From Balamuthia mandrillaris (lineage: Eukaryota; Discosea; Longamoebia; Balamuthiidae), in assembly GCA_031835245.1 (NCBI GenBank), contig JAVKOQ010000055.1:5001-69000 (forward strand): a DNA stretch of 64,000 nucleotides. The letters run 5' to 3'. The notes beneath the pieces were generated by a model, which saw nothing but the letters and a program-made list of their open reading frames with translations, had not been told where the DNA came from and did not search any database. The position numbers and the translations under genes are program-made. Within the stretch, counting starts at the first letter, position 1; every line of letters begins with the position of its first letter. Shown in pieces: positions 1-45,539 of the stretch.

Positions 1-11
1 TCTTGTATTCT

Positions 12-385
12 TGTTATTGGTTGAATCTAATCTTTGAAATAAAAAGTCAATGATGAGATAAGAAGTATATTCAAGAGAATAGAGGAAGGACAGTGAGAGT
101 GAATCTTCAACATTGCTTCAAAGTACACCATGAGAAAAGAAAAAAGGAAAAAGAAAAGATGGAGGATACAATAGAAAGAGCTGGGAATCTGGATAGAACC
201 AATATTATGTAATAGGGCTGGTGAGGAAACAACCCAACAGATACCAACTCGTTGTGTACAAGGAAAAGACCTTTAATAGAATGAAAGAAAAAATATATAT
301 ACAACAAGAGATAGAGATAGGTATTATGGGAAAGTAGTATAACAATTAGGAATCTTGAGATAAGTGTTTAGTGATTTTACCAACA
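12..385. repeat. LTR-like repeat family 1, copy 1 (interrupted)
   Basis: This copy matches the intact copies at 5328-5563 (same orientation) and 7274-7507 (opposite orientation). It runs from a degenerate TGTT(AT)TGGTTGAATC start to GATTTTACCAACA. It is split at 208-344 by a family 2 element, which accounts for its extra length. No coding potential is visible. The TG...CA ends and roughly 235-bp unit length fit a solo LTR of a retrotransposon; a small non-autonomous terminal-inverted-repeat element is the alternative. This copy has diverged and shows no clear target duplication of its own. Confidence 0.6.
208..344. repeat. LTR-like repeat family 2, copy 1, nested in family 1
   Basis: A 137-bp element starting TGTAATAGGGC and ending GTATAACA. 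It is flanked on both sides by ATTA (204-207 and 345-348), read as a 4-bp target-site duplication. Removing it restores the alignment of the host family 1 repeat to its other two copies. A second copy lies at 3564-3699. There is no open reading frame. Element class (solo LTR or MITE) is an inference from the ends. Confidence 0.6.
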
Positions 386-1783
386 TTGTATATTGGTGCA
401 AACTGTCAATAAAAGACAAGTTAGAACATAATTAAAATTTTAAAGTTTTGTTTATAAAGAGGAAATTTTTTAAATAAAGTTTGTATTTCATTTCTATGAA
501 AGTTATGAATTTGTATTTATGTGTATTATTAGACCTGATGGAACAAGAGTTTGTTATACTCACTTTAAATGTGTTTTTATTTTATTTAAAACACTTATGT
601 ACTTTCTTCTTCATTGTTATCAAGTTGAAAGGGAATGGTCCAAAAATAAAACTCTCCTTTCTCTATCATATGCCATGTAGATGACCATTCTAACCAATTT
701 GAAAATATAAGAGGAAATTGAAAGGTCTTTTCTTGGTTTGCTGACCGCCATGCATCTTGCCCAACACCACATAGTTGCATTGCAGAAAATATGGCCTGCA
801 GTTCAACTTCCAACAACGGAAGCCTTCTGATGATCACCCATATTTTGTTTGGGTTGGTTTCATCTTGTTTTACTTCCGCCCAGTAGCCTGGAAGATTTCA
901 CAACACCAAGACCACAGCATCAGTCATCTGAGCACACCAAAACCAGATGTCTTGTTGTGGTGATGGAGTGAGTTGGTGTGGTAGTGGTGATGAAGAAGAA
1001 AGGCGTTTGTGCTTGAGCCTTTGTGTTGGTGAAGTGTGATGAGTGTTGTTTGGTTGCTGTACAGCCACCTTTTGGTATTGTGGCTCAAGCGGTTCTTCTT
1101 CTTCTTTCTCTTCTTCTTCCTCTTCCCCCACTTCAAAAAGCCCATTGCTTCTTCTACTTCCTGATCTAAGAAAGGCTCAGCAGTTCATCTTGTGTTGTTT
1201 CTCAATGCAAAAAGGTCATTAATCATGGAGGTTGAGAGTGGGGGTACTTGTAAATAAAAGTTGTTAGCAAGTGCACTTAAAGGCTAAGAGCAACTACCAT
1301 TACCTTTTTGTTTGGCTTCATTTGTTTTTCTAGTTCTTTCCATTTCCTTTGAATGGTGACCACAGACCGAGATTTGCCAAGTCCTTTGTCAACATGGGAC
1401 ATGCTTTTTCCCAATCTCCATTGAAGCTTTTGATGGCATCACTCACAACTTTTAGTTCCTTTGCAGTCCATGTCTTGCCTCTTTCACTACTCATTGTGTG
1501 TGTTTGTGTGTGCGTGCATACATGTGTGCATGTATGTGTAAAATGTTAATGGTCTTATTGTTAAAAGACAAACAAAAAAAACATTCAAAAAGAACTTTTG
1601 CCACCATGGCAATGCCCAACTCATCTTTTTTGCTTTCCTCCTTCCTCTTTTTCAAGTACAGAAATTTCATAAAATGAAGATCATAGCAGGTTGTTTGCCA
1701 GATTGGGGAGGATCATTTGTAAGTTCAAAAGTTCATTATTGAGGTTGCCAAAGTTTGTTAGTTTGAATGGTTGGTTTAGTTCT

Positions 1784-2040
1784 CAACTTGCAAACTTCAA
1801 ACTTCAATCGGACAAATACCTGACAGAAACACAGTGTGAACCCATCAATTTTTTAATCTTTTTTTACAAAATTTGGGAATAATTTATAACTCCTAATCAA
1901 AGAAAACACAAAACCATTGATTGTTGGATAAATTGAATTAAATTTCGTTTGGAGAGGATCGAGATCTTAAGGGTTCGCACTGTGTTTCCGTCAGGTATTC
2001 ATCAGATTGAAGTTTGAAGTTTGCAAATTCAACCAAGTTG
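1784..2040. repeat. Inverted repeat (foldback) within copy A
   Basis: An arm of about 60 bp at 1784-1843 is repeated in reverse complement at 1971-2040 with few mismatches. The shared core includes AAACTTCAAACTTCAATC and AATACCTGAC. The arms are separated by about 127 bp of AT-rich sequence. The block lies in the part of transposon copy A that is missing from copy B. It could therefore be the remains of a later foldback or MITE-type insertion. Confidence 0.6.
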
Positions 2041-2358
2041 TGAAATTTGATGAACTTAATCATAAGGTGACCTGACGATCTAACGATCTTCAATCTCTGG
2101 AATTTCTTGACCAAGGATCGGGTACTACTATAGAGTTCATGTCATTATTATTATTTTTTTTTTGTACTGAAGCAAAGAGGGCTTCTTCTCGTGGTGTTGC
2201 TGCTATGCTCCACCTTCTTGAGTGTGATGAAAAGCTTATTGGCAGCAAAGTCAACAAGCACAAGTGGTGAGCCCATTTTGGGGTTAGTTTTACAAGAAAC
2301 AACTGTTGTGTTAATGTGTATTTTACAAGGATGTCACTTTGAGCGACCATTTACTTGC

Positions 2359-3236
2359 AAATACTTACTTTGGATGCTGTACTTCTTGAAAGTGTATCCC
2401 ACTGAGGACATGGGTTGCACTTTTTGCTGTTGTACTCCCAAAACTTTTCAATTTTGGGTTCATCATGTCATTGAAGTATTATTAGAACCACTCGTCACTA
2501 TGTTCAAGGTTTTTTATTACTTCCCCTTCCCTTTCTTCCTCTCCCTTTCTCTCTCTCCTTTTCACTTTTGCTCTTTCTTTTTGTTGTTGTACTTTTTCTT
2601 GTTTCTTCATTTTTTCTTTCTTCTTTTCTTTTTCTCTTTACTGTCATTCTTCTTTCCTTGCTTTAATCTTTTTTCTTGTTTTTTCTTTTTCATTTTTTCT
2701 TTTTTTTGCTTATAAAGCACTTTGATTAGTATCATGGCCAAGTTCTCCACCAACCTTTAGTCACAGGCATCATAGATACTACAGAGTGTCCTGTTCAGCA
2801 TTCCTATGAATGCCAACACAATAAAGGCAAAAAAAGCAGCACACAGTCATATATGAACTCATGTGGGACTTGATGACAAAGCTCTTTTCTTGGGTCAACA
2901 GCCCTTTTCCAGGTGCAGTACATGACCTCATAATTGCTCATCAAGCTTTCCATTCATGAGATCCTTTTAGGTGACCTTGCTTACCAAGGCAAACCGAGTT
3001 TTTTTACTCCCATCAAGAGAGAGCGAAGACAAAGCTTGGGCGAGTTGGCTCAAGTTTTTAACCGGCTGTTGGGAGCAGAACAAGTGGAAGTGGAGAGGGC
3101 GATTCATCATCTAAAAGTTTTCAACTGCTTACATACCACTTGGCATCACTCATTAGAGTTTCATTCTTCATGCTTTACCCTTATTGTTTGTATTGTAAAC
3201 ATTGATTTATGTTTTTTTCCTTTGACTGGCAAATAA
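2359..3236 (+). pseudogene. Decayed DDE_Tnp_4 (Harbinger-type) transposase, copy A
   Basis: Three blocks in different frames together match the HARBI1/DDE_Tnp_4 architecture. A helix-turn-helix-like block near 2359-2490 contains KVYPTED and TPKTFQFW. A middle block near 2770-2945 has IDTTECPVQ (first catalytic Asp), then a frame change, then WVNSPFPGAVHDLII (second Asp). A C-terminal open frame at 2934-3236 has GDLAYQGKPSFFTPIKR, FNRLL and EVERAIHHLKVFNCL, where the third acidic residue sits. Family assignment rests on these motif orders. The frame changes make it a pseudogene unless some are introns. Confidence 0.7.
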
Positions 3237-3563
3237 ATCTTCGTTCCCTCAGGTCTATTATACATAATCAAGTTTTTTCAAATTTCTGGGTTTATTAGTA
3301 TTTTCTCATTTAAACCAAGTATGAAAAAAAGTATTTTTGGAAAAACTTGCAAGTGCTAAGTAATATACTTGAAGTTTAAAATTCAACAATTAATTTTTGA
3401 CATTATATCATTGTTATTTTTGTTTTTAAACATATTTTAAACAATGATACTAATTATTGTTTAATCAAAATATTCAATATAATGATTTTTTATTATTATT
3501 GAATCTACAAATGATTGGTTTTTTCTCATGATGATAATGCTTTGTCTAATTAACAATGCATTA

Positions 3564-3699
3564 TGATAAGGCCGGTGAGGGAACAACCCAACAGATACCA
3601 ACTTGTTGTGTGCAAAGAAAAGACCTTAAATAGAATGAAAGAAAGAAATATTTATACAAAGAGTGATAGGGATAGGTATTATGGGAAAGTGGTATAACA
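3564..3699. repeat. LTR-like repeat family 2, copy 2
   Basis: About 136 bp closely matching 208-344: shared GGTGAGG(G/A)AACAACCC, AGACCTT(T)AATAGAATGAAAG and GGTATTATGGGAAAGT. It ends GTATAACA like copy 1. No matching target duplication is evident, so this copy is older or was altered at its edges. Confidence 0.55.
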
Positions 3700-4006
3700 G
3701 AACTTAATAGCACCAGTTATAGCATTATAATCAATACTTAATAATGTATAAGGTGATACTTCACTACCAATCATTACAAGTATTCTCTTTGTATCAAAAT
3801 GATTATCAAGTTCACTGACTGTATACTTTGGTTCACTTTCTAATGTTATATTCAAAATTTTGCAAGTAATCTGTTTAGCAATGTGAGATTTTTTACAACA
3901 AACTTACCCCATATATTTCTTAAAATAGGACATCATTTCAATAATACCAATCCATTGCACTGCGCAGGTGTAGCTCCATGCAAAAGATGTGACCCTCATT
4001 TGGGAG

Positions 4007-4056
4007 CAAAAGTGTAATTTTTCCCAATCAAAAAATACCCAAAAATTACACTTTTG
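4007..4056. repeat. Perfect 16-bp hairpin
   Basis: Arms CAAAAGTGTAATTTTT (4007-4022) and AAAAATTACACTTTTG (4041-4056) are perfect reverse complements around an 18-nt loop that itself begins and ends in CCC. It lies between the two transposon copies with no gene attached. Function unknown. Confidence 0.6.
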
Positions 4057-4135
4057 TACATGTTGACAAATACATGCAGCTGCATCAGTCGACAAAAACA
4101 AACAAGACAGTTGTGGAGAGCTTCTAGTTCCTAAT

Positions 4136-4513
4136 TTGCTCCAAATGTTGCAGCACTTGTGCGTCCTTCCACCCGAACATGGAACTGGGACAAAATATGA
4201 TAACCCTACATTCTCCTACAGTCATAGTGGTTGTAAGATGAAATCCAAATCAGAGGGAGAAAGACGGAATCATGAGAAAGAACATACCGAATGCCCTACT
4301 GGTTGTGAGTGTTGTCCTGAGAACAGAAAAACCAAACGAAAGAAGATCACAGAGATTGGCAGTTTCTGTTTTGCCTTCAAAATGGTGGTTGAACAACTTC
4401 TTCAATTGACGTTCTTTACAGCAGGCCTCCTTGGCGTCATGGTTTCAGCTGTTTTCTTCATTGTATGTTTTATAACAGTGTCAACACAAGAAACTCGGTT
4501 AAATCAAAGATAG
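4136..4513 (+). CDS. Unassigned ORF with C-terminal hydrophobic segment
   Basis: A 125-codon open frame between the two transposon copies. The middle is basic and Cys-containing (CPTGCECCPENRK). The C-terminal third has a plausible membrane helix (GLLGVMVSAVFFIVCF). I recognise no family. It sits in AT-rich repeat territory with no nearby conserved gene, so it may be a chance ORF or a fragment of a decayed gene. Confidence 0.2.
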   Translation: MLQMLQHLCVLPPEHGTGTKYDNPTFSYSHSGCKMKSKSEGERRNHEKEHTECPTGCECCPENRKTKRKKITEIGSFCFAFKMVVEQLLQLTFFTAGLLGVMVSAVFFIVCFITVSTQETRLNQR

Positions 4514-4738
4514 AAAATTGTCTACAAATACAGTGGGGTTGCTTGGCGCCATGCAAGCCTTTTCCTGTACAGTGGTTTGAATCAACAAAAAAAGAAGGTT
4601 TATCTTTACAATGAATGAATAATTTTTGAATTTGTTGATGATTTGATATATGTCCTTGAATAAAACTTCATTTATTCAACCAAGAATAGACCTGAGGGAA
4701 TGAAGGTTTATATGTGAGTTAAAGTAAAAAAACATAAA

Positions 4739-6352
4739 TCACTGTTTACAATACAGACAATATATGTAAAGCATGAAGAATGAAACTCTAATGAGTGATG
4801 CCAAGTGGTATGTAAGCAGTTGAAAACTTTTAGACAATGAATCACCCTCTCCACTTCCACTCATTCTGCTCTCAACAGCTGGTTCATCACCTGCTTTGGA
4901 CTGGTAGGCTGTCGTTAGCATCATTCTGGTCAGAACTCAGTTCCTCCTTATTCAGGGCCAAGGGACAGAAAAATGAACAGAATGAAAAGAGAACAAGCTG
5001 ATATGTGAAAGGGTTATATTTAATGTAATTACAAACCTCATCTTACTGACATGTAAAGAAAAAGTGAAATGCACCAAGTTGAAACAGTCATTAGGCAGGT
5101 AATATGATGGTGAAATAGTGTGAATAAAGTAAGCACAAAAAACAGAAATACAAAGAAAAAGCCTAAGGGGACCTACCATTAGTAACGTCTTTATAAGCAG
5201 GGAAAGCATCAAAACAACCTTTTGTATGACATCACTTTTTCCTTTTTCATGCTTTTTTTCATCTAGACCTCCATTCTCTATGCTGCTCTCCTGCTTGTTT
5301 AGATTTAGATTTTAGATTTTAAAAATATGTTGGTTGAATCCAACCTTAGGAAGGAAAGAGTCAGTGACAAGACAAGAAGTGAATTCAAGAGAATAGAGGA
5401 AGGACAATGAGAGTGAATCTCTGACATTGCTTCAAAGTACACCAAGAGAAAAGAGAAAAGGGAAAAAGAAAGGATGGGGGGATACAAAAGAAAGGAGAGC
5501 TGAGGGTCTGGGACGGATCCAACATGAGGAGTCTTGAGATAAGTGTTGGTGATTTTACCAACAAATACTAAAATCTCAAACTGAAATCAGCTAGAGGGTT
5601 GTCATAATTTTGACCAATAGGAAAAACTTTTGACATCAGTACGATCATGTCCTCTCTCCTCTCTGCTGTTGGCTTTTCTAATCAATACCCGAATATCTGC
5701 TTCAGATATCTGCCTGGATAACCACTTGGATATCCACTATTTCTACTGAAAAAGGGCAGACAAGGGGACAGATAAGAACAGCATATATGGGAATTATCCA
5801 CAGATATCCACTATATCCTACCCACAGAGAACGCCCTAACAAGTAATTGTGAGGTCATGCACTGAACCTGGAAAAGGGCCGTTGACCCAGGAAAAGAGCT
5901 CTGTTATCAAGTTCCATACAAGTTTGTATTTGACTGTGTACTGCTTTTTTTTGCCAAAATAAAATGTATGTTGAGTATTGGCATTCAAGGAACGCTGAAC
6001 AGGACACTCTGTAGTGTCTATGATGCCTGTGACTAAAGATTGGTGAAAAACTTGACTGTAACACTAATCAAAGTGCATTTCAAGGAAAAAAAAAGAAAAA
6101 GAGAAAAAGAAAAAACAAGAAAAACAATTAAAGCAAGGAAAGAAGAATAACAGTAAAGAGAGAAAGATATGAATGGAGAAACAAGACGAAGTACAACAAC
6201 AAAAAGAAAGAGCAAAAGTGATAAAGAGAGAGGAGAAAAGGGAAGGGAAAGTAATAAAAAAACCTTGAACATAGTGACATGTGGTTCCAATAAAGCTTCA
6301 ACAACATGATGGACCCAAAATCAAAAAGTTTTGGGGGTACAACAACATTCAA
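4739..6352 (-). pseudogene. Decayed DDE_Tnp_4 transposase, copy B
   Basis: On the minus strand, about 6020-5836 keeps one open frame containing IIDTTECPVQRS, FGKKKQYTVKY and WVNGPFPGSVHDLTIT. This is a cleaner version of the catalytic core than in copy A, with two of the three DDE acidic residues. The C-terminal block appears only after a roughly 950-bp interruption, at about 4880-4740, and is frame-broken. The first half (6352 onward) holds the HTH-like region with indels. No intact transposase can be read from it. Confidence 0.65.
5328..5563. repeat. LTR-like repeat family 1, copy 2
   Basis: A 236-bp intact copy from TGTTGGTTGAATCC to GATTTTACCAACA, flanked by AATA on both sides (5324-5327, 5564-5567). 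The 7-bp ends TGTTGGT are inverted. No ORF. It is inserted inside the interrupted part of transposon copy B. Confidence 0.65.
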
Positions 6353-6706
6353 AGGAAATGGAAAGAACTATTGAGTGCAAAAAAGATGAAGCCAAAAAAA
6401 AAGGTAATGGTAATTGCTCTTGCTAACTTTTGTTTACAAGCACTCCCACCCTCAACCTCCATAATTAATGACCTTTTTGCGTTGAGAAACAACATAAGAT
6501 GAACTGCTGAGCCTTTTTTAGATCAGGAAGCAGAAGAAGCAATGGGCTTTCTGAAGCGAAGAAAGAGGAAAAAGAAAAGGAAGAAGAAGAAGAACTGCCT
6601 GAGCCACAATACCAAAAGGTGGCTGTATAGCAACCAAACAACACTCATCACACTTCACCAACACAAAGGCTCAAGTGCAAACACCTTTCTTTTTCATCAC
6701 CACTAC

Positions 6707-6971
6707 TGTTGAGAATTACTCTCAACATATTAGTTCCATTGCCCCTTTCCTTTCCTTTCCTCTCTGTCGATATCTGTGACATGAACCAATCGCCTGCTGC
6801 CACATTGCTAGGCTTCTTCCTTTTATTCTGTTGCTTCCTTCTCTCTTTCTTTTAGTTAGTTTTGTTTTGTTCACACCACACCTTTCCCTCTTGACACCCT
6901 TTGTTCCCTTGTTCCCTCTTTGAATAATACGTTTTGGCCCTGTCTGTTCATGTTATTCGCCCTTTCTAACA
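6707..6971. repeat. LTR-like repeat family 3, copy 1, nested in transposon B
   Basis: A 265-bp element starting TGTTGAGAATTACTCTC and ending TTTCTAACA. CTAC is duplicated on both sides (6703-6706, 6972-6975). The uninterrupted target is present in transposon copy A near 978-985 (reverse complement of CACTACCAC). TG...CA ends and a 4-bp duplication fit a solo LTR. Confidence 0.65.
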
Positions 6972-7273
6972 CTACCACACCAACTCACTCCATCACCACA
7001 ACAAGACATCTGGTTTTGGTGTGCTCAGATGACTGATGCTGTGGTCTTGGTGCTGTGAAGTCTTCCAGGCTACTAGGTGGAAGTAAAACGAGATGAGACT
7101 GACTAAAACAAAATATGAGTGATCATCAAAAGGCTTCCATTATTGGAAGTTGAACTGCAGGCCATATTTTCTGCAATGATGCAACTGCATGGGGTTAGGC
7201 AAGATGCATGGTGATCAGCTAACCAAGCCAAGACCTTTCAATTTCCTCTTATATTTTCAAATTGGTTAGAATG

Positions 7274-7507
7274 TGTTGGTAAAATCACCAACACTTATCT
7301 TAAGACTCCTTCTGTTGGATCCGTCCCGGACCCTCAGCTCTCCTTTCCTTTGTTTTCCCCATCCTTCCTTTCTCCCTTTTCCTCCTTTCTCTCGGTGTAC
7401 TTTGAAGCAACGTCGGAGATTCACTCTCGTTGTCCTTCCTCTATTCTCTTGAATACACCTTGTCTCGTCACCAACTCTTTCCTTCCTAATGTTGGATTCA
7501 ACCAACA
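7274..7507. repeat. LTR-like repeat family 1, copy 3, nested in transposon B
   Basis: A 234-bp element from TGTTGGTAAAATC to GATTCAACCAACA. AATG is duplicated on both sides (7270-7273, 7508-7511). The corresponding empty site in copy A (686-689, CATT on the plus strand) is intact. This gives direct evidence of insertion after the two transposon copies had formed. Confidence 0.7.
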
Positions 7508-7956
7508 AATGGTCATCTACATAGCATATAATAGAGAAAGGAGGATTTTATTTTTGGACCATTCCCTTTCAACTTGATAACAATGAAGAAGAAAGTGTAT
7601 AAGTGTTTTAAAATAAAATAAAAAACACCTAAAGTGAGTAGAATAAACTCTCATCCTCAACCCTGATAATAATTTTAATCAATTTTTTGCTATTGTTTTG
7701 TTTGGTTCTGTACCTTATCATCAAAATAGTCTTGCATATAATGATACTATGCATATGAGCCATGAACAATGTGCATTATTCCAGTTGAACTAAAAGGAAT
7801 ACAAGCAATTTTGTGAGAATTAAAATAATGAATAAATAAACACTTACCTTCTGATCCTCCTAACACCTTATGAACATTGCATAATCAGGCTGATTTTAAA
7901 AATAATAAAAATATACACAACATTGCATTAGTATGAAAAATATTCACCTTGAGTAT

Positions 7957-8122
7957 TGTTGAGAATTACTCTCAAAATATTAGCTCCATTGCCTCTTTCC
8001 CTTCCTCCTTTTCCTGTCAATATCTATGACATGGACCAATCACCTGCTGCCACATCACTAGGCTTCTTCCTTTTATTCCATTGCTTCTTTCTCTTTTTCT
8101 TTTAGTTAGTTAGTTTTAAACA
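7957..8122. repeat. LTR-like repeat family 3, copy 2 (3'-truncated)
   Basis: Matches the first ~160 bp of 6707-6971: TGTTGAGAATTACTCTC, CACCTGCTGCCACAT, AGGCTTCTTCCTTTTATTC and TTTTAGTTAGT. It then diverges. No flanking duplication is visible. Its right end overlaps the putative last exon of the UFSP2/ODR4-like gene. Confidence 0.55.
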
Positions 8123-15041: not shown

Positions 15042-16311
15042 TCAGACAAGAAGTAGCTGACGAAGGCGGCTGTTGGCGCTGTCTTCGCTGGAGGCGCTGC
15101 TGCCATCGTCCCCATCACTTTGGCTTGAACTATCATCTGTATAAACTGTTGGGACTGTTTTGACAAGAGAGAGAAAGAGAGAAGTAAGAAAATGGAAAAC
15201 ATAATGAAAGGACGAGAACAAACAAAACGTACCATAACCAGCTGTACAAAAGTCTGTTTGACAAACTGAACTATCTTTGCCACAGTGAGGACAATGAGTC
15301 TTTGCATCGATTTGAGCATTGAGCAAGTGCAACGTTCTGCAAAGCGTAGAGTTGCCTTTCAAAGGATAGTCCGCACAAGTTCCTTTTGTTAAGATAAAAG
15401 TTAGTGAAACACACAAATAAAGAAAAAAACATACAGACAAAAAATTGAAGGTTTAAAAATACCAGGAAGACTTTCCATAAACTTGGTGCATTCCTCTATA
15501 TTGGCGTATTGTTGGTTCTCTCCTTGACACACGACTGCAATGCCAGCGCAGATGAAGCTGATTGGAGGAGACTCTTCATCCCTCAAGAAATCGCCAGAAA
15601 GGTTGTTGTAGATGTAGAGCAGCTTTTCCGAGCAGTTCACAAACTCGAAACGGTTAATTCCGGTTTCATTATAGAATTCTTCTCCTTTTCTGTTTTGAAA
15701 AGGAGAGCAAAAAACAAAAACAAAAACAAAAACAAGACAAAAACAAAACAAAAGAAAAGAAAAAAGTAACAACAAAAAAGTGGAAAGGTGTCAGTCTCAA
15801 CCACAAACAATAAGAAAGAAAAACAAAAAAGAAATATGACTTACTTGGCCCTAACCACGTCCTCTTCAGTTTCGATGTAAAGTTCATTTTCAGAGAGCCA
15901 CTTGATGGTGTCGTTGCGAGGGTCGCGACGAGTCCATTCGAAGTTGTTGTCATTGTACTCAGGGTTACCCAACAAGCCATACTCCAACTGGACAGAGAGG
16001 AGAGAGAAAGAGAGAGGGATTAGTGAACTTCAAACTTGTCATCGGTGATCAGGAATTCGGTTCAACATACCACCATCTCCAGCGGTCCCCATTCGCCAGA
16101 CTGTTCTACGTTGTGGTAGGTCTCGTTGACCATAATGCTGCACGGAGGAAACCACATACAGAAACAAGCGGATTGGAGTGACCATTATTTTTTTAAGAAA
16201 ATAAAAAAGAAAATAAAAAGGTAGGCAAAGCGCAAAAAAAAAGGGGGGCGATAGAGGTACGTACGTTTTCATCTTTGCGGTCCATTCCTCAACGCTGGGC
16301 CTGGAGGGCAT
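15042..16311 (-). CDS. Cys-rich secreted-type protein, 5' end displaced
   Basis: Six exons (16311-16265, 16137-16071, 15987-15845, 15689-15463, 15382-15233, 15154-15042) give 248 aa from the only local ATG. I do not recognise the family with certainty. The second half has a conserved-looking pattern, ECTKFMESLPGTC, CRTLHLLNAQID and THCPHCG, of the kind seen in secreted fungal and protist proteins, then a Ser/Asp-rich tail. The local N-terminus (MPSRPSVEEW) has no signal peptide. Residues from V7 continue in frame from the signal-peptide exon at 23062-23213 if the 16295-23213 inversion is undone. The first six residues here are then fortuitous sequence from the WD40 gene's antisense strand. 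Confidence 0.6.
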
Positions 16312-16778
16312 TACGGCAGCATTTACTCAGTAATGGTGGTAGACAGGCTGTTATTGGCCGGTACCTACGAGAACTCCATCATGATCTTCGACTTGGGAAC
16401 GTTAGTTTGTGTTAGAGCTTTGGCCGGACACATCGGCGCGGTATACGCGGTGTGCGCTCAGGACGGCAAGCGAGTGTTCAGCGGCTCCTACGACAGCACC
16501 ATCAAAGTTTGGAACTTGGAGAACTACAAGTGCATACAAACATTGAAGCGACACGCGAGCAGCGTTGAGGTTCGTTTTAGTTGGGTGAGTTATTATAATT
16601 TTTGATTAACAATGCCATGAAAAAAGGCCCTTGTTTGTGCTGGCGACTATGTCTTTAGTGCTTCTTCTGACAATTCCATAAAGGTCATCTCTCATCTCTC
16701 ATCTCTCTCCTCTCTCCTCTCTCCTCTCTCCTCTCTCCTTCGATCTGACCTATATTTTGTTTACAGGTGTTTCGCTAG
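16295..16778 (+). pseudogene. 3' end of a WD40 gene, separated from its body
   Basis: Exons 16295-16569, 16627-16683 and 16767-16778 encode about 2.5 WD40 blades: GGHYGSIYSV, GTYENSIMIFDL, GHIGAVYAVCAQDG, SYDSTIKVWNLENYKC, SASSDNSIKVFR, then stop. There is no plausible start or upstream exon, and its first 17 bases overlap the antisense of the adjacent gene's first exon. The blades match in style those of the RING/TRAF-WD40 gene that ends prematurely at 23209. At 16291-16294 the sequence AACG is shared with that gene's break. It is probably its true C-terminus, moved by inversion; alone it would not fold as a full propeller. Confidence 0.7.
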
Positions 16779-16838
16779 GCCGGGTAAGAATAATATTGTA
16801 AAAAATAAACATTATCCGCAAAAGCACAATTTTTTTTT

Positions 16839-18978
16839 TCATTGCTGCTGCGCGAAAAGAGCCTCTCTGGAGATCCACTTGCCATGGAAGCCGTAAGGCA
16901 CCCTTCTAGGAATTGGGATGGTGGCAACCGGCTCGCACTCCTCGGTGAAGGAGGCAGCATCCATCACCCATAGCTCGGTCGTATCCCTCAACTCATCATA
17001 AACGAAAGTGATGAGATAGCCGTCATCCTCGTTCTCTGCCTGTTTACGCGGAACAAACACACATTCACCTCCATATTTGCCACGAGGGAACTTCATCACC
17101 TTCACGTTTTTCTCTTTCTTCACACTGCTGCTACCACTTTCTTCTTCGCCGCTCTGTTTAAAGTCGAACTTGAGGATGGCATCCAACTTTGGGGCAACGT
17201 TTCCGCTGTCTTTATGGTCTTCCACGCGCATAGCATAACCATAGCGAGTGGGATAGCCTAGCGAGTCATCCCGAACACGAGGGAACTCACAAGGCATATG
17301 CCACAGTCTTCTCTCCTTGACAGAGTTGCTGGCCAAGTTGAACCTCCACTCGTGGGCGAATGGGAGGTGAGCCTCCGAGAAGCCATATCCATTGTCGTCC
17401 AGGTTGAGAGAACCAGTGCTCTTGCTGCGGCAAGCCAGCAGCACCACCTCATGCTTGCCCTCCTCCCAGGCATTGAAAGTATGGAAGATGAAGCAGGAAG
17501 GCGTCTCAAACCAACGGATGTCTGCCTGTTTCTTGGCGTGGCGTGGCAGAATGCCGAATCTGCTGCGTCTCATAGGCTCAAATGCAAGAGGAGACTTGCC
17601 TTCTAAAAGCCTTTCTGGGCGGAAGGTAAAAGGTAGTTCCATTATTATACTTTGGTTGAAGTATGCATGGTTTAAGTTTAGCGTGTTGAAGCTTAAAATT
17701 TAGGAGAAGAATCTAGGAGAACAAGCAAACCTGTAGTGTTGAGTAATGGCAAAGTCGTGCATCATGACGGGCACCTCGATGTCAATAGGCAACGTACGGA
17801 CAAGGCATCCTTCTTTGGAGACCACACTGTAAAAGACATAAGGTGCGCTTTCCACGCGATAACCAAAGAACACCATCTCTCCAGTCTTTGCGTCTACCTT
17901 TGGATGAGCTAAACACAAAAAAAATGTTTAGTCTTGGCTTTAACGGGCACTGTTGGTACAGAGGTCGTTTGTATTAGCGAAGGGTCAAAAGAAAACAAAC
18001 CTGTGAAGGTATGTTGCAGCTTGCCGTTATAGTCATAAGGGCCAACTGTCTCCAATCTGGGCAACTTCACGTGGTGAGGCACATCGTTCTCTACTAACGC
18101 CAACAATCTGCCATCATGATACTCCACATTTGTGTTGGCAGTTCCTATTGTGACCAAGGGGGGGGGGATAGAGAAACACGACAAAGAGAGAACAAGTGAG
18201 ATGGACAATTGGAAATAGATGAATCAGTGAGGTAAAGAAGCGAGAAGAGCAGGAACGAATAGAGGTCGCAGGAAGAAACAAGTCCAACCTTTGCCAGTGA
18301 GACGCTTCTTTATGTGCAGCGTCCTCAACAAACGGTCAGCCAGCAGAAGGAAGAAGGCAGAGGCGTTTCTAAGGTCGCCCAACCGAGGGTACAACCTTTT
18401 GCCACTCTCATTCTCATCTTTCCACCTTTGAGTTTTGACCCATCTGTTCGTGTACGTAGCTCGTCCATCCTCAAAGATCACAGCGTGCAACATGCCATCT
18501 CCATCAAACCTTTTTTTCGACATTTTACTCAGTAACGAACAAAAGAAGTTGAGAGATGAAGGAAAACGAACCAATGATAGTGTCCTCCTTGAGAAGGATG
18601 GTGATCGAAACGAGGATTAGGCCCATTGCGAACCTGCAACAAGCCATAAGAAAAAATAAAAGCAACGAAACAAAAAAAAAACTCGTACAAAGACGCCATC
18701 GAGGTCTTCTGGCAGTTTGCCGTTCACAGGCAGGTCAGAAGCCCACAACTCATCAAAAACAGGAGCAAAGTTCTCCTCCAAGAAAGGATCTGTATTCGAG
18801 TAGCAAGGTTATTCAAACAAGAGAAGCAAGAGGGGAGAGAGAGAGAGAGAGAGAGAGAGAAACTACTGTGGGCAGTCTTCTTATTGCCAAGCAGGCCAAA
18901 GAAGTATTGGGAGGCCTCCCCGAGCAGGGTGAACCACAGCTTCACCGCTACTCGGATCAGCACGAAGAGCTTCCACAT
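16839..18978 (-). CDS. Carotenoid cleavage oxygenase (RPE65/CCD family)
   Basis: Seven exons (18978-18867, 18789-18689, 18633-18572, 18509-18289, 18144-18001, 17908-17731, 17649-16839) give 542 aa, the usual family size. All four iron-ligand histidines are in place: His215 in AHPKVDAKTGE, His264 in MMHDFAIT, His329 in FIFHTFNAWEE and His528 in YGFHGKW. Other family signatures are VRNGPNPRF and HWFDGDGMLHAV. The first ~40 residues are hydrophobic (MWKLFVLIRVAVKLWF...LLG), a possible membrane anchor. The enzyme class uses non-haem Fe(II) and O2 to cleave carotenoid or stilbene double bonds; the substrate cannot be told from sequence. It lies inside the proposed inverted segment, intact. Confidence 0.88.
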
Positions 18979-19195
18979 TTTTTGCGCAAGGAAGAGGTAT
19001 TGGCCTTAATGAAAAGGGGAAAAAAGAAAAGAAAAGAAAAATAGGAAAAGGGGTGTGGCCAAGGTTTCTTCAATAGGGGAGTGAAGGAAAGGATGCTGTG
19101 CGAATAAACTTCAAAAATGTGCCTTTTCTTTCGCTTGTGCTTGGTCTTTATGTATTTTTTCTTTCAGTTTTCTTTGCGGTGATGTGAATGGGTGG

Positions 19196-19673
19196 TTAAA
19201 TAAACGACAAAAGATGATCAACGGCACCTAGTGCTGGAAGAGTTGGTTTGGACGCAGAAGAGACATCATCACCTTCGTTGCCTTCTCCGCCGTCAAGGGA
19301 AATAATGTCGACGTCTCTTTTGGTGGAAGACGAAGGCGAGGAGAACGAGGAGGCGGAAGAAGAAGAAGAATAAGACTCGCTCTCGAGTGTTGTTTCTTCT
19401 CCTTCTTCACCTTTCGCCGCTGTTGTTGCAAGTGGTGTTGGAACAAGACAAGAGCTGCTGCCAAAGCTCGATTTAGGAGAGCTTCCCAACGTTAAGTTGC
19501 AGAACTGTTCGATGGAAATAGGAGCAAAGTAAGTGGCATAAATGTTGACTGATGGTCCCATGATTTGCACGCTGTGCTCAGCTCCAAAGTTATGTCCGAC
19601 TTCATGAGCTGGCACCAGCCACTGTGGATGAACGAAAAGAAGGGAGGGATCATTTAGTTTTGAGTGAGCGAGC

Positions 19674-19706
<33 letters not shown>

Positions 19707-21091
19707 CGAGAGAAGAGATACACACGCCAGCATTTCCGGTCATGAAGCCAGACACAGCCGAACTTGTGACGCCATCAAAAGTGCTGCCATTGTAGCAAAG
19801 CACTCCCACCCATCCCCTTCCTGCCTTTCCTTCAACTCCTCTATTTTTTTTAAAGAAGAAACTTAGAAACAAAGGAGAAAGGGCAATAAGAGAAGAGCAT
19901 ACGGATAACAGCCGGAGAGCAAATGCCACAAGCCAATGGACGTATCCGTTTGTTGGACTTGCCAGCGACCAAACTCCAACAATTTGTTGTGAATGGGAGG
20001 GCAAGTGGCAGCATTCCAGGTTGGGTCATAGGAGTTTGTGGTTTGTATGACTAGTCGCTGGATGCGTGGAGTGACGTTGACAGCCTGTTGGTAGGCTGCT
20101 GCCATCAAGTTCCAATTGAAGGCGATAGTGTTGAAGGCTTGCTCCTCTCCACCTGCAAGACTGGTGTACTGAGCATCCGCAGCAACACCCTATTCGTTAA
20201 GAAGAAAAAGTTAGATGATCATTGAATAAACAACTGCATTGAGGCAGAGAGGGTGTTGTTTCTTACCATGTATAACGTAGAAGCTGGCAATAAAGGACAG
20301 TTTCCTCTTTTTTGGGAGGAATGTTGGCGAGTATTGACGGTTCTGCCTCTTCCATCTCCAACGATGCCATCGGGATTCCCACATCTGATTGATGGCTCAT
20401 CACGCGAGAGCATAAAATCGGTCTCTTCCTCGCCTTCGCCATGTTCCGTAATGGCAGATGGAAAGTCCTTTGTTGACTCCTTGTATACGATCATCTTGTC
20501 TTCGCCTCTCTTGTTCACTGAGCTTGGATGCAGGTAAGTAGGTTCCACGACGTATCCTTCATTGGTGGCCTCATTCCAGATGCGCATGTGCCAAACGCCG
20601 TTAGGCTCATCCACCAACACCGCATGAACCGAAGCTTGCTCTTCATCATCTATACGTCCCTCTCCAACAAACGCTACTTGCCGCGGCGAACGACTGTCCA
20701 ACAGCACGCCATCCTGATGGATCTCCACAAGGGCGTTTTTGGCGAACACCATATGGTTCGGTCGAAGCGATGCTACAAAGTTTCGGCGAAGAGCAGAAAA
20801 CGAAACGTGGAATGTGTTATGACTTGATGATACGGGTTGAGGGTCACGGCGTATCTCGTTGGAAGGAGAATAGCGAGAGCTCTGGATAGATGTTAGCGTC
20901 TCGTATTCTCGTGGCATCCGCTTTGCTACATCGAAACAGTTAAGTGTGTGTGAGAGCGAGAGAGAGAGAGAAGGCATGAAACAAAAAAGCGAGAAAACGG
21001 GCGTACCTCCAACGGAAAAACTAAAGGAGATGTTCGGAAGCGTAACCAACAACAAAAACGTGATCCCAAGGAGCTGTTTCATCTCAGTCAT
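19196..21091 (-). CDS. ADAM-like (M12B) metalloprotease
   Basis: Five exons (21091-21007, 20925-20267, 20189-19903, 19840-19726, 19621-19196) give 523 aa. A signal peptide (MTEMKQLLGITFLLLVTL) precedes a pro-domain of the ADAM10/17 type (LRPNHMVFA, GYVVEPTYL). The catalytic core has CYNGSTFDGVTSSAVSG, then the zinc motif HEVGHNFGAEH followed by a Met (QIMGPS) and FAPISIEQFC. There is no disintegrin, Cys-rich or EGF domain and no membrane helix. The C-terminus is instead a Ser/Glu-rich tail. This makes it a shortened secreted protease compared with animal ADAMs. Substrates unknown. It lies inside the proposed inversion and reads through cleanly. Confidence 0.82.
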
Positions 21092-21636
21092 GGCCCGGCA
21101 CGCAGCGCTTCCTTTTTGTTTGAAAAAAAAAAAAAGAGTAGCACGCAGTGCACCGCTTGTGGATCGGAAGCTAGGAGGGGGAGAGAGCAAAAGAAAAAGT
21201 AGCGAGGAAAGAGCTGTTTTGTTTGTATGGAGCAAGAAAAAAAAAAACGATGACAAAAAAGACAAGTCACAAGTAATGTCTGGTTGAAACAAACAAACGG
21301 GGGAGGAAGACATGTCTGATTGATGGTTGTCGCCAAAACGAACAAGTCAAACAGGTCAACCACCCATCCACCCATCCCTCCCCCACCCATCCAACAGCGG
21401 ATGACGAATGCCAACAATAAATAACAACAACAATAAATAACAACGGCTACATTATTTTTTTTTCCTGTTTTGTTTGGTGGCCCTTTCCCTCTCCTCTCCA
21501 CGACTCTATGACAGGTTGTGGGAGGGAGGGGCCAAAGGAAAAAAATGGCCGATGGGTAGACATGAGAGAAGGCGAGAGAGAGCATGTGAGAAGGGAGGGA
21601 GAGAAGGGAGAAGCAGAGACGAGAGGAGACAGGAAG

Positions 21637-21681
<45 letters not shown>

Positions 21682-21810
21682 GGATGAGAGAGGAAGAGGG
21701 GGGGAGACAGAGGGAAGAAAATGAAAAGAGGAGAAGAGAGATGTACGTTGGTTGCATGCGGCAACTACTGCTTCAAGAACCGTTGAAGAACTTTAGCCAC
21801 CAGCGCGTTG
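21092..21810. other. Intergenic region with GA microsatellite
   Basis: About 720 bp between the protease start and the stop of the glutamine amidotransferase. It is strongly purine-rich on the plus strand with a (GA)n run near 21641-21675. Open frames here are low-complexity shadows. No gene, RNA or clear promoter element was recognised. Confidence 0.5.
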
Positions 21811-22797
21811 CTAGCCTCCTTTTCCAGCGATACCAAAGCAGCCGTATCCTCTGCGTCCGTCAAGCGACCTCCTTTCAAAGAAGGGTATATCTTCTCTGTT
21901 TATGTTTGCATGTTTCAACATATATCTTAACTCTTCATAAACGGCGAACAAAAAGCAAATCGTGGTACCGAGCATGACTGAAGGCGTGAACTCAGGATGT
22001 CCTTGAATAGCGATAATGTGGTCGGCAACGCCATATATCTCGTTGAGGTTAGTCGCGGTGGAGGCCAATAACTCAGCCTCTGCCGGAAGCGCCGCAACAG
22101 CATCGCCATGGCTTTCCAACAGGGTTAACTGCTTCGGCAACTCCTCCAATGACAAGTCCTTCAACGCCGCTTTGACGTAGGCCTTTTCCACAAAGCTGTT
22201 TGCAGTACGTGTTACTCGTGAGCACAAACGAATTTCTCTTCTCTTCTAATGCCGGGGATATCCCTCTCATTCTCTCCCTCCCTCTGCTCCGCTCATATTT
22301 GAAGAACCAACCAAGCTGTAGGAATAGCCTCCTCCGTGCCAAAAATGAAGCGGCCATGGCTGTTGGGGGTGCACAGTCCACCAAGCGAGTGAGCAACGAG
22401 CTGAGCTCCAAAACAAATGGCGACCATGCGTGGCGTTCGTTCTGGCTCGCGTTTTACCAGCTCCCAATAACTTAAGTTTTGTTTTCAGTTTGTACGTTAA
22501 GCACAGTAAGCAATCACGCCTGTGGTGTAAAAGTTAAAAATACCCTTTCAACCACTGTTTTAAGTCGTTGATCCACGGCTCATCGTCATAGGCGGACCAC
22601 CGGCTGCCAGACACAATGAGGCCTTTGAAGGAAGAGAGCTCCTCCAGGGGAGGCAGCTGCCGGTTGATCGCTTGGTGCACGACAAACGCGGTGGTGGGCT
22701 CCTCTTCCCGAATGAGGTCCACCAGCAAGCTCTCAAAACCCTCCCACTTGGGCGCGTCTTCACACCACAATATGGCAAACTTGTCCCCCTTCTCCAT
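21811..22797 (-). CDS. Class I glutamine amidotransferase (GATase1) domain protein
   Basis: Three exons (22797-22544, 22470-22312, 22195-21811) give 265 aa. The order of signatures is that of single-domain GATases related to GMP-synthase glutaminase: FAILWCED, FKGLIVSGSRWSAYD, the nucleophile segment AICFGAQLVAHSLGG, NSHGRFIFG, and the catalytic His-Glu pair in IQGHPEF. The triad Cys-His-Glu is therefore present. No synthetase domain is attached, so it may hydrolyse glutamine or a gamma-glutamyl compound, as stand-alone members do; the exact substrate is not predictable. It is inside the proposed inverted segment and undamaged. Confidence 0.8.
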
Positions 22798-23061
22798 TTG
22801 CTTTTTCTTCCCTTTTTTTCTCTCTTTGTTGCATTTTTCTCTTTCTTCCTATTTGCCTAATATGCAGACCTTATAATGACATATTCGGCCCATAACAGCC
22901 AACGGCATTTGACCCGATAGCAATTCATCAAGGCAATAAAAGATACCAGGCAGCGGCGGCGTCAATACCTCGCAAATTTTATCGTTGCGCAAATTGTTGG
23001 CGTATTTTTTTTTTTTGCTTTTGTGTGCGATCGAAGAACAGAAAAAACAAACGTAACCGAC

Positions 23062-23217
23062 ATGAGGCAGTTTCTGGTGGCCTGTTGCTTGCTGGTGTGC
23101 GTCGGCTTTGCCGCGGCTTGGAGCTGCCCTGACTGGGAGTCCGAGGAAGCCTTGCAAGAGGCCCGCATCAATGTGGCTGTGCTGTACCTCAAGTGGGGCG
23201 TGTGGTTGTTAGACGTT
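23062..23217 (+). pseudogene. Orphan first exon with signal peptide
   Basis: The ATG at 23062 opens a secretory signal (MRQFLVACCLLVCVGFAAAW) followed by SCPDWESEEALQEA and LKWGVWLLD. The frame then runs into unrelated sequence that belongs to the antisense of the WD40 gene and stops. At 23214-23217 the sequence CGTT is the reverse complement of AACG at 16291-16294. Joining here continues in frame into VEEWTAKMKT of the Cys-rich gene at 16293, supplying that gene's missing signal peptide. Taken alone the exon has no donor site and no downstream partner on the plus strand. Confidence 0.7.
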
Positions 23218-25770
23218 TATATTTTTTACACACTGGAACGTTTTTGTGTCCCATATCTTTTTTTTTTTGATTTACATCATTAAGACTAGAGGTAAATAAA
23301 AAACAAAGAAGCAGAAAGAAAGCGAACCTTGATAAGATTGTAGCAGCCACTGTAGAGGTAGTCGCCATCGACACACATGGCACGGACCCAATGGTTATGG
23401 CCTTTCAATGTTTGGATGCAGGTAAAGGAGGCGACGTCCCATACTTTAATCTCGGTGTAGCTACCGCTGAACAAAAAGTTGTCCTTTACCAACAATTTGC
23501 ATATGGTATTGCCATGCCCTGTTATTGTTTGTACACATTTCATCGTTTTTGTGTTCCACACCTTAACGTTTGCTGTTAGGAAAGAAAGAGACAGAGACGG
23601 AGACAGAGAGACAGAGATAGACAGAGAAACAATAGAAATGGTTGAACCTTGATTGTTTTGTCAGAGGACCCACTAATGAGTCTCTTGCCTACCACGATAA
23701 CTGCATGAACTATGCCGTTGTGGCCTGTTAACGTATGCCTCACTTTGAATGTCGCTCTGTCCCACACCTGTTATTTAGGAACAAAAAAAAAGAATTTCAA
23801 CAAAACAATCACGAAGAAGAAGAAGAAGAAGAAGAACAAAATAATTACGCGAATGGTTTGATCAGAGGACCCGCTAATGAGTAAAGTGGGCGTGACAGCC
23901 AAAGACCAAACAGGGCCTTCATGTCCCATGAATGTGCCTTTGCACTTGAAGATGTGAGTGTTCACCTCCTCTATAGATATTTAACAAAAAGGAAGAAGTG
24001 TAAGAATGAGAGGACGCCACACGAAGAAGCAAGGTACAGACCATCTGGGGGAATGCCACTTGCAACTGATTTTGTCTTTTTGGTTCCACTGGTTTTTAGA
24101 AACGGCAATGTATCGATTGGAGCTACGCAATTTTCTGTTTGTTCTTTTGTTGTGAGTCGAGTGAAAAGAATAAACAAAGCATCAAAGCAACAAACCCGGT
24201 TTTAATTGTAGCATGTGAGTGAGATCATCCACTTTGGTAGTCAAACGTTTGACAGCCTCTCTGAGTTCATAGTTTTCTTTCTTTTGTAACTGGAGATGAG
24301 TCATTAGGACTCTGGCCTGTTCTTCCTGTTTCTGAATGAAGCCCTTTATCTTTTCATAAGGACATTGCTGCAGATGAACGTGAACTTCATCCTTCCGTGC
24401 AATGTAATCACAACCTGCTTTCTGTATGGATAGAAGAGAGAGAGAGAGAGTGTGTGTGTGTGTGTGTGTGTGTTGTGTGTTAGTGAATGAGTGAAGGTGT
24501 AAGTAACAGAAATACAAAGGCAACAGAGGATGATGAACAATAAACAAACCTTGTGAGGGCAAGGTATACGATCGCACCGTTTAACGTGTTGATCAATGTT
24601 CATTCGAAGAAAGAAATTCTCGCAAAACGGACACTGCACGGGAGCGTGCAAACAAGTCCGTTCGTGCTCTCGCTTTTGTCCCAACTTTACCTTCTCTTTA
24701 CATCCTCCCTCATCACTGACTAACTTCAAACTTGTTGTTTGCTCCGCCGCCGATTTATTTTCTTCGTCAACATTATTGCTGGAAGAAGGAGCGCTCGTCG
24801 TTGCATGAACTTGTTTACAGCCATATTTACAATGCACGAGAAGATCGCTTATTTGTCCCATGATAGCCAAGTTTGGGATCAAGTAATGCAGGTCAAGTTC
24901 CTCGCCGCACTCTGGACACATCACCTCCATCACCGCTGTATTTGCTGCTTCGTCGTTGTCTTCCACACCGCCGCCAATGCCTGATTTCACCCCTTCCATG
25001 GCCTTTGCTGGATATGGCGTGTTTGTCGTTATGGCTGCTGTAGGGGAGGAGGAAGATGGGCTTGTTGCTCCTGCTTTTGTGGGCATTGCTTTGCTGATGA
25101 GCCGAGAAGAAGACGGAGCAGAAGGAGAGGACGGGGCAGGAACAATCGGAATTTTGCCTTTACGAAAAGCAGAGGAGGAGGAGGCTAATGGAGGTGAGGC
25201 CTTGTTGCCGTTGTTACTTTCATGCTTTGCCGCAGCCTCTTGAAGAAGGCATCGTTTGCAAAAGGTGTGTCCGCAGGAGGTGATGACAGGGTAGACGAAC
25301 AAGCCCTTGTGCAAAGGGCAGAACAAGCTGTCCGAAGGTTGATGTACGAACAACGTCTCTTCCTCCTTCCAACTTATTCTTTCTCCTCCTTCGTCATCCT
25401 CGTCTTCCCCCTCAACCTCAGCTTGTTCATCTTCGAATTCTTCGGCAATGTCTTCGTCCAATATCACAGCGTTTTTGCTTTGCTGTTGTTTGCGATGACT
25501 GCTTGTTCGTGGAAGCTGAGCACGCTGGTGTCGACGAGAGGCGGTCAGGGAACCTCCCGCCGCTACAGAGGAGGCCACATCGCCCTTCCAACGCGCAACA
25601 GGAGACAGCTTCCCGGCAGAGCTGCTCTTTTTGGTTTTCTTTTTCTTCTTGACGGAAGCCGTGGCGGCGGAGGAACTCAAAGCCAACGGAGAGCCCTGCA
25701 CCTGTGGCGGCAGCGGAGATGATGATGCTGATGACGGCGGCGTTCCAGCAGCACTCTCCGTCCTGTCCAT
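23209..25770 (-). CDS. RING/TRAF-zinc-finger WD40 protein, 3' truncated
   Basis: Seven exons (25770-24550, 24421-24196, 24134-24042, 23970-23849, 23767-23648, 23561-23328, 23256-23209) give 687 aa. After a Ser- and acid-rich N-terminus comes a RING-like finger (FCPLH...CGHTFCKRC). It is interrupted by about 100 residues of Ser/Pro/Ala-rich sequence before the last pair (MCPECG). TRAF-type zinc fingers follow ([39 protein letters not shown]), then a coiled coil and about four WD40 blades ([41 protein letters not shown]). Architecture recalls TRAF7-type E3 ligases. The stop after VKNINV falls mid-blade, and the missing blades are at 16295-16778. As assembled, the propeller is incomplete. Confidence 0.8.
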
Positions 25771-26209
25771 TGCTTACCACTTTTTTACAGCACAACAAAA
25801 AATCAGAATTATTTTTTCCTCTGTCGCTCTTCTTTCCTTTTATTGTACGTGCTATTTTTAGATATTCCTAATTTGAACAATTTGTGGACAAAATCTCCGA
25901 ATTATTATCGATAATTAATCTCTTTTTATCAAATTATTGTTTAAACAGGAGCGCCCTGCCAGGGAGCACGGGGGATGAGTGGTGAGGCCACACCACCTTC
26001 TTCTTCTTGTTCTTCTTCTTCTTCTTGTTCTTCTTCTTCTTCTTCTTGTTCTTGTTCTTATTCTTCTTCTTCTTCTTCTTCTTCTTCTTCTTCTTCTTCT
26101 TCTTCTTCTTCTGTTCGCAACAACGACAGCAACAGGCAACTCGAAGGATATTAAGATCACGACATTCATAAATACTTGTATACATCGCCTCGTATCCCTT
26201 CCTAATAGC
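25771..26209. other. Intergenic region with (TTC)n microsatellite
   Basis: About 440 bp between the RING/TRAF start and the stop of the PSI protein. A (TTC/TTG)n run covers about 25997-26112 (plus strand). Flanks are AT-rich. Six-frame translations here are mono-amino-acid artefacts. It may contain the PSI gene 3'UTR and the RING/TRAF promoter. Confidence 0.5.

Positions 26210-45508: not shown

Positions 45509-45539
<31 letters not shown>

What the first reader, a model, noticed from the sequence alone, without database searches (positions are those of the whole stretch)
16291..23217. A 6.9-kb inversion has cut two genes, and undoing it restores both in frame
At 16291-16294 the plus strand reads AACG; at 23214-23217 it reads CGTT, its reverse complement. 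Left of the first break is the minus-strand Cys-rich gene without a signal peptide. Right of it is a plus-strand WD40 tail without a beginning. Left of the second break is a plus-strand signal-peptide exon without a continuation. Right of it is a minus-strand RING/TRAF-WD40 gene that stops mid-blade. Flipping 16295-23213 joins GVWLLD to VEEWTAKMKT and CVKNIN to AGPGGHYGSIYS, each within a codon-exact frame and with no intron needed. Two independent reciprocal joins make chance very unlikely. The three genes inside are intact. It could be a recent rearrangement (microhomology-mediated), a polymorphic inversion between haplotypes, or an assembly orientation error.
Basis: seen in the sequence. 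Interest (0 to 1): 0.92.

Follow-up and report, generated by a model that had tools for sequence, protein, structure and literature searches.

The report
Small inversion splits two amoeba genes
In this genome assembly of a free-living amoeba, a 6.9-kb stretch lies flipped so that two neighbouring genes are each cut in two; it looks like an ordinary recent inversion, and only raw reads or a second strain can show whether all copies of the genome carry it.

Summary
The window is contig C54 of the Balamuthia mandrillaris ITSON01 assembly. One cut gene is TRAF7, a conserved RING/zinc-finger/WD40 ubiquitin ligase: its head ends at 23214 in mid-blade, its tail starts at 16295 on the other strand. 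In 93 of 97 zinc-finger-bearing homologues the two pieces map to consecutive residues of one protein; four decoy WD40 pieces come near that place in 0 to 3 of 97. The other gene belongs to a small secreted-protein family; that side rests on frame, place and architecture, since its short N-terminal piece has no significant match. The breaks share exactly 4 bases and none of the listed long inverted repeats joins them, so an assembler flip is unlikely. One correction: the TRAF7 pieces hold four residues more at the break than homologues. Only one version of the locus was found in the assembly. Best reading: a recent balanced inversion with microhomology in the sequenced DNA, perhaps on only some copies of a genome reported as hyperploid. 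A new example of a known kind.

The parts
16295..23213 (.). inverted segment (6,919 bases)
   Evidence: both ends cut a gene, on opposite strands
16291..16294 (+). AACG, shared bases at break 1
23214..23217 (+). CGTT, shared bases at break 2
24550..25770 (-). TRAF7 head, exon 1: RING and zinc fingers
24196..24421 (-). TRAF7 head, exon 2 (coiled coil by eye)
24042..24134 (-). TRAF7 head, exon 3 (boundaries after the deposited protein)
23849..23970 (-). TRAF7 head, exon 4: WD40
23648..23767 (-). TRAF7 head, exon 5: WD40
23328..23561 (-). TRAF7 head, exon 6: WD40
23214..23256 (-). TRAF7 head, last piece before the break; absent from the deposited protein, which reads into the intron before it
16295..16569 (+). 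TRAF7 tail, first piece after the break: WD40
16627..16683 (+). TRAF7 tail, next exon (splice sites by eye)
16767..16778 (+). TRAF7 tail, last exon with stop codon (splice sites by eye)
23062..23213 (+). signal-peptide-like first exon of the secreted-family gene, cut off from its body
16265..16294 (-). secreted-family gene, rest of the cut exon
16071..16137 (-). secreted-family gene, exon
15845..15987 (-). secreted-family gene, exon
15463..15689 (-). secreted-family gene, exon
15233..15382 (-). secreted-family gene, exon with conserved Cys/His region
15042..15154 (-). secreted-family gene, last exon
16842..18616 (-). inside the inversion: RPE65-like oxygenase exons
19196..21346 (-). inside the inversion: M12B reprolysin-like peptidase frames (matches below Pfam cut-offs)
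21811..22848 (-). inside the inversion: class I glutamine amidotransferase-like gene (one frame, 21811-22245, matches above cut-off; the rest by eye)

Best explanation
The sequenced amoeba DNA carries a recent balanced inversion of 16295-23213. Two double-strand breaks, one inside TRAF7 and one inside a secreted-family gene, were rejoined the other way round at 4 shared bases, as end joining with microhomology would do (mechanism inferred). Shown: two split genes with reciprocal geometry, and TRAF7 continuous in relatives. Inferred: that this is a change from the ancestral order, that it is recent, and that chromosome copies carrying it have no full TRAF7. Whether all copies carry it is not known.
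For: TRAF7 pieces map to consecutive residues in 93 of 97 zinc-finger-bearing homologues; the other 4 have the tail 5 to 8 residues further on. Under a looser rule (start within 8 residues of the head's end) four decoy WD40 frames of the same genome do so in 0, 0, 3 and 0 of 97 (two decoys are long frames of 486 and 587 aa, so weaker controls). Head and tail are 71.0% and 76.4% identical to the nearest relative P0002, so the cut-off tail has not decayed more than the head. No stop or frameshift in the exons as drawn; the one TAA that flags lies just past a splice donor. The deposited protein of this contig (P0001) is a truncated 'traf7'. Head exon, interior and both breaks match only C54; the tail's next match is 45% identical (150 of 297 candidates scored). 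In the secreted family 8 of 10 members have a strongly hydrophobic N-terminus, the other 2 looking incomplete; the exon at 23062 has one and the body has not; landmark spacing over the two pieces is 55 residues against 49 to 60 in the 9 of 10 members that could be measured, landmarks picked by eye. The breaks share exactly 4 bases. No gap at the joins.
Against: No second strain and no reads could be searched. The TRAF7 pieces carry four residues more than homologues exactly at the break: a native longer loop or about 12 added bases. The N-terminal piece of the other gene has no significant match to the family profile (E 0.17). No inversion was seen in four pairings of homologous contigs from two other regions (130 rows of 300 bases or more, many of them overlapping repeats, one orientation per pair), so such events are not frequent there.
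Confidence: 0.78

Rival explanations
1. Assembly or library artefact: the segment was put in backwards, or chimeric molecules were assembled.
For: Hybrid ONT plus Illumina assembly by MaSuRCA. 'Whole genome amplification', a step that can make chimeras (recalled), is a keyword of the paper; the word stem occurs nowhere else in its main text. Redundant, mosaic contigs show that the assembly is not clean.
Against: Only 4 bases are shared at the breaks, and none of the 25 longest of 151 inverted pairs listed joins the two breaks, so there is nothing for an assembler to flip on. Chimeric molecules would have to form both reciprocal junctions at matching places. No gap at the joins.
Confidence: 0.17
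2. The inversion is real but carried by only some chromosome copies, and the assembler kept that path (a sub-case of the best explanation, not a competitor).
For: The V039 genome paper reports 'indication of hyperploidy' (PMC4582570, read whole). In this assembly C58, C609 and C524 cover one region in divergent versions and C481/C56 another. No decay of the cut pieces.
Against: No other version of this locus was found: left flank, interior, right flank and both breaks match C54 only.
Confidence: 0.45
3. Old arrangement: the halves are now separate genes with their own partners.
For: None found.
Against: The head reads one more codon and then a stop (by eye); the deposited protein just reads into an intron. 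The tail has no start codon before the break in its frame. The WD40 propeller is cut in mid-blade.
Confidence: 0.04
4. No rearrangement: unrelated WD40 and signal-peptide fragments lie there by chance.
For: WD40 and signal-peptide stretches are common.
Against: 93 of 97 homologues continue from head to tail; decoys 0 to 3 of 97 under a looser rule. The tail's next match in the genome is 45% identical.
Confidence: 0.01

Closest known systems
Small balanced inversions joined at microhomology (end joining), known from many eukaryote genomes (recalled)
   Same: Reciprocal junctions, a few kb, a few shared bases at the ends, no long inverted repeats seen.
   Different: Cuts a coding exon at both ends, so two genes are broken together; four extra codons at one junction.
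TRAF7 (E3 ubiquitin ligase with RING, TRAF-type zinc fingers and WD40 blades)
   Same: Domain order and sequence; nearest relatives P0002 (metagenome, 51% over the searched region) and Acanthamoeba P0004 (45%).
   Different: Split over two strands in this assembly; no second copy found.
Recombinase-driven invertible switches (phase variation; recalled)
   Same: A flipped segment between short inverted bases.
   Different: Ends share only 4 bases; no recombinase among the frames tested.

Membership tests
TRAF7 | RING domain | tested here: met
   PF13445, 27.1 bits against cut-off 25.2
TRAF7 | TRAF-type zinc fingers | tested here: met
   matches to TRAF5 and TRAF6 chains at residues 342-403, E 1.5e-4 to 1.1e-3; 97 of 119 homologues align over this part; no Pfam zinc-finger model of this part above its cut-off
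TRAF7 | C-terminal WD40 blades | tested here: met
   PF00400 above cut-off in both pieces; colinear in 93 of 97
TRAF7 | all parts in one gene on one strand | tested here: not met
   head minus strand to 23214, tail plus strand from 16295; hence 'split TRAF7 gene'
balanced inversion | both reciprocal junctions present | tested here: met
balanced inversion | no bases lost or gained | tested here: inconclusive
   four extra codons against homologues at the TRAF7 break; ancestral bases not available
balanced inversion | ancestral order seen in a sister genome | not testable with these tools
   no second Balamuthia genome was available; only protein continuity in other species
microhomology-mediated joining | short shared bases at the junctions | tested here: met
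   exactly 4 bases, chance about 0.016
invertible switch | inverted repeats at both ends and a recombinase | tested here: not met
   4 shared bases only, none of 25 listed inverted pairs joins the breaks; recombinase looked for only in the 30 frames
assembler flip | long inverted repeats or gaps at the joins | tested here: not met
secreted family whose members bear the label PF28386.1 | conserved C-terminal Cys/His region | tested here: met
   profile of ten members, E 1.3e-19 in a search of two sequences, match limited to body residues 110-193; match to C11 at E 4.3e-9; direct protein search with the body found nothing
secreted family whose members bear the label PF28386.1 | hydrophobic N-terminus joined to the body | tested here: inconclusive
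   exon at 23062 hydrophobic (2.81), body not (0.39); the piece alone has E 0.17

The most novel reading that the evidence does not exclude
The inversion is a standing or reversible structural allele in a hyperploid amoeba, present on some chromosome copies and absent from others, that switches off TRAF7 and a secreted protein together and so varies their dosage between isolates or during culture.
Probability: 0.06. Interest if true: 0.6.

Novelty: new member of a known kind. Interest (0 to 1): 0.3.

Why it matters
If real and on all copies, ITSON01 (isolated from an artificial lagoon) is a natural loss-of-function strain for TRAF7, an E3 ligase whose relatives listed here come from amoebae, sponges, fishes and other animals. 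If on some copies only, it is a marker for structural variation in a hyperploid amoeba. If an artefact, two gene models of the annotated ITSON01 genome need flagging, and comparisons that count these genes as absent or broken would be wrong.

Tried and rejected
Pfam on single exons and on the spliced body of the secreted-family gene gave nothing above cut-off, and a protein search with the body found no relative (0 of 111 candidates); the family was reached through a paralogue on C11. PDB sequence searches with WD40 pieces showed generic WD40 proteins and no TRAF7 among the 60 rows shown of 432 and the 60 of 159. The idea that the four extra codons mark a lost intron was dropped by eye: no usable donor at the cut end and no pyrimidine stretch before the tail. 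The extra bases have no second copy in the window. A 19.5-kb DNA query for other versions of the locus was swamped by simple repeats and did not list the locus itself, so it says nothing; short coding queries were used instead. Homologous contigs were compared in four pairings from two regions; a further pair (C88/C179) was not done. My first exon 3/4 boundaries (also in the head used) differ from the deposited protein and were corrected for the parts list. Papers: listings for Balamuthia with inversion (10 shown of 23), with heterozygo- (10 of 16), TRAF7 with amoeba (4 of 4) and for false or polymorphic inversions (8 of 39); by title and start of abstract none reports a nuclear inversion in Balamuthia or this gene there. 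PMC4665321: passages only, nothing on ploidy. PMC10196457: outline and methods only, not used.

Full report
What the window is. The window is bases 5001-69000 of contig C54 (245,870 bases) of a 64.8-Mb assembly in 775 contigs. The paper gives 65.2 Mb in 841 scaffolds with 0 N; the held version is slightly smaller. What I read of it: abstract, introduction, most of the methods, results, most of the discussion, and passages. It describes a MaSuRCA assembly of ONT and Illumina reads.

The breaks. AACG stands at 16291-16294 and CGTT at 23214-23217. The outer flanks share exactly these 4 bases and the inner ends none; 4 or more would occur in about 1.6% of random breaks with equal base use. Of 151 inverted pairs in 14.0-26.0 kb the 25 longest were listed; none joins the two breaks. 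The longest (47 bases, 70%) lies some 200 bases off and pairs two WD40 blades.

TRAF7. On the minus strand from 25770 to 23214 seven exons or exon parts give about 670 residues with a RING, TRAF-like zinc fingers and WD40 blades. The best named relatives are TRAF7 proteins (120 listed of 5,504 at E up to 0.001, from 8,000 scored). The head ends in mid-blade and, by eye, reads one more codon and then a stop. On the plus strand from 16295 a WD40 tail runs to a stop at 16778 with no start codon before the break. I tested the link without joining the pieces: each was aligned on its own to the 119 homologues other than this contig's own protein. In 94 of 119 the two lie next to each other with the same small overlap. 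Among the 97 that also match the zinc-finger part it is 93; the remaining 4 have the tail 5 to 8 residues further on. Of the 22 without that part, 1 is colinear and 21 are not; where named these are mostly repetitive WD40 proteins. Four decoy WD40 frames from other genes of this genome start within 8 residues of the head's end in 0, 0, 3 and 0 of 97; this rule is looser than the one for the tail, and two decoys are long frames and so weaker controls.

Between the blade cysteine and the next GSIYS-like motif, 61 of 62 motif matches in the homologues have 8 residues and one has 9 (120 proteins scanned; the others did not fit the motif), whereas the two pieces here add up to 12. The surplus sits exactly at the break. 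It may be a native glycine- and proline-rich loop or bases added when the ends were joined. It has no second copy in the window. The pieces differ from P0002 by indels of one and two residues elsewhere, so a native loop is possible.

The other gene. The body (16294-15042, minus) belongs to a family with members on C11, C58, C609 and C524 of this genome and in metagenomes (8 proteins found with the C11 member, its own included). They carry the precomputed label PF28386.1, which the Pfam copy used here did not report. The profile match of the body is confined to the Cys/His region. Of ten members 8 have a strongly hydrophobic N-terminus; two that look incomplete do not. The exon at 23062 has one and the body has none. 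The spacing of two landmarks, picked by eye and summed over the two pieces, is 55 residues, inside the 49 to 60 of the nine members that could be measured. The N-terminal piece alone has no significant match (E 0.17), so this side rests on frame, place and architecture. The function is unknown.

Copy number. Queries over both breaks, the left flank, the interior and the right flank each match C54 only; the tail's next match is 45% identical, with 150 of 297 candidates scored. So I found neither an ancestral version nor a second TRAF7. One long query was uninformative. Other regions do exist in two or three versions: C481 against C56 (about 87 to 99% in pieces of 1 kb or more), C609 and C524 against C58 (about 77 to 99%). 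The 130 aligned rows of 300 bases or more, in four pairings from these two regions, keep one orientation per pair, so no inversion was seen there. The V039 genome paper reports 'indication of hyperploidy' (PMC4582570, read whole). An inversion on one of several chromosome copies is thus easy to imagine, but not shown.

Real or artefact. An assembler normally needs long inverted repeats, or gaps, to place a segment backwards; neither was seen. Chimeric molecules would need two reciprocal junctions at matching places. I therefore hold a true inversion in the sequenced DNA to be more likely than an artefact, but only reads can show it. The lack of decay (tail 76.4%, head 71.0% identical to P0002; no stop or frameshift in the exons as drawn) says that it is recent or that uninverted copies exist.

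Verdict. A sound first reading, confirmed on one side by independent evidence and consistent on the other. In kind it is ordinary: a small inversion with microhomology. Its interest lies in the double gene break and in the possible natural loss of TRAF7 in this isolate.

Noticed in passing
window 16295-16306: Four codons more than in TRAF7 homologues sit exactly at the break; native loop or bases added at joining.
   Followed up: partly
C58, C609, C524; C481, C56: The same regions occur as two or three divergent contigs with mosaic identity, about 77 to 99%, as expected of a hyperploid or hybrid-like genome.
   Followed up: partly
P0001; window, intron after 23328: The deposited 'traf7' protein of this contig reads into an intron and stops, which hides the break.
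   Followed up: yes
window 1-8000: G+C is 0.34 to 0.38 against 0.41 to 0.53 in the rest of the window; one long frame there (2134-2712) gave no Pfam match.
   Followed up: partly
window 25997-26112, 45510-45793, 60381-60659: Long CTT, AAG and CTTCCT arrays.
   Followed up: no
C58:34199-38818: Three tandem copies of the secreted-family gene, beside long repetitive frames that look ankyrin-like by eye.
   Followed up: no
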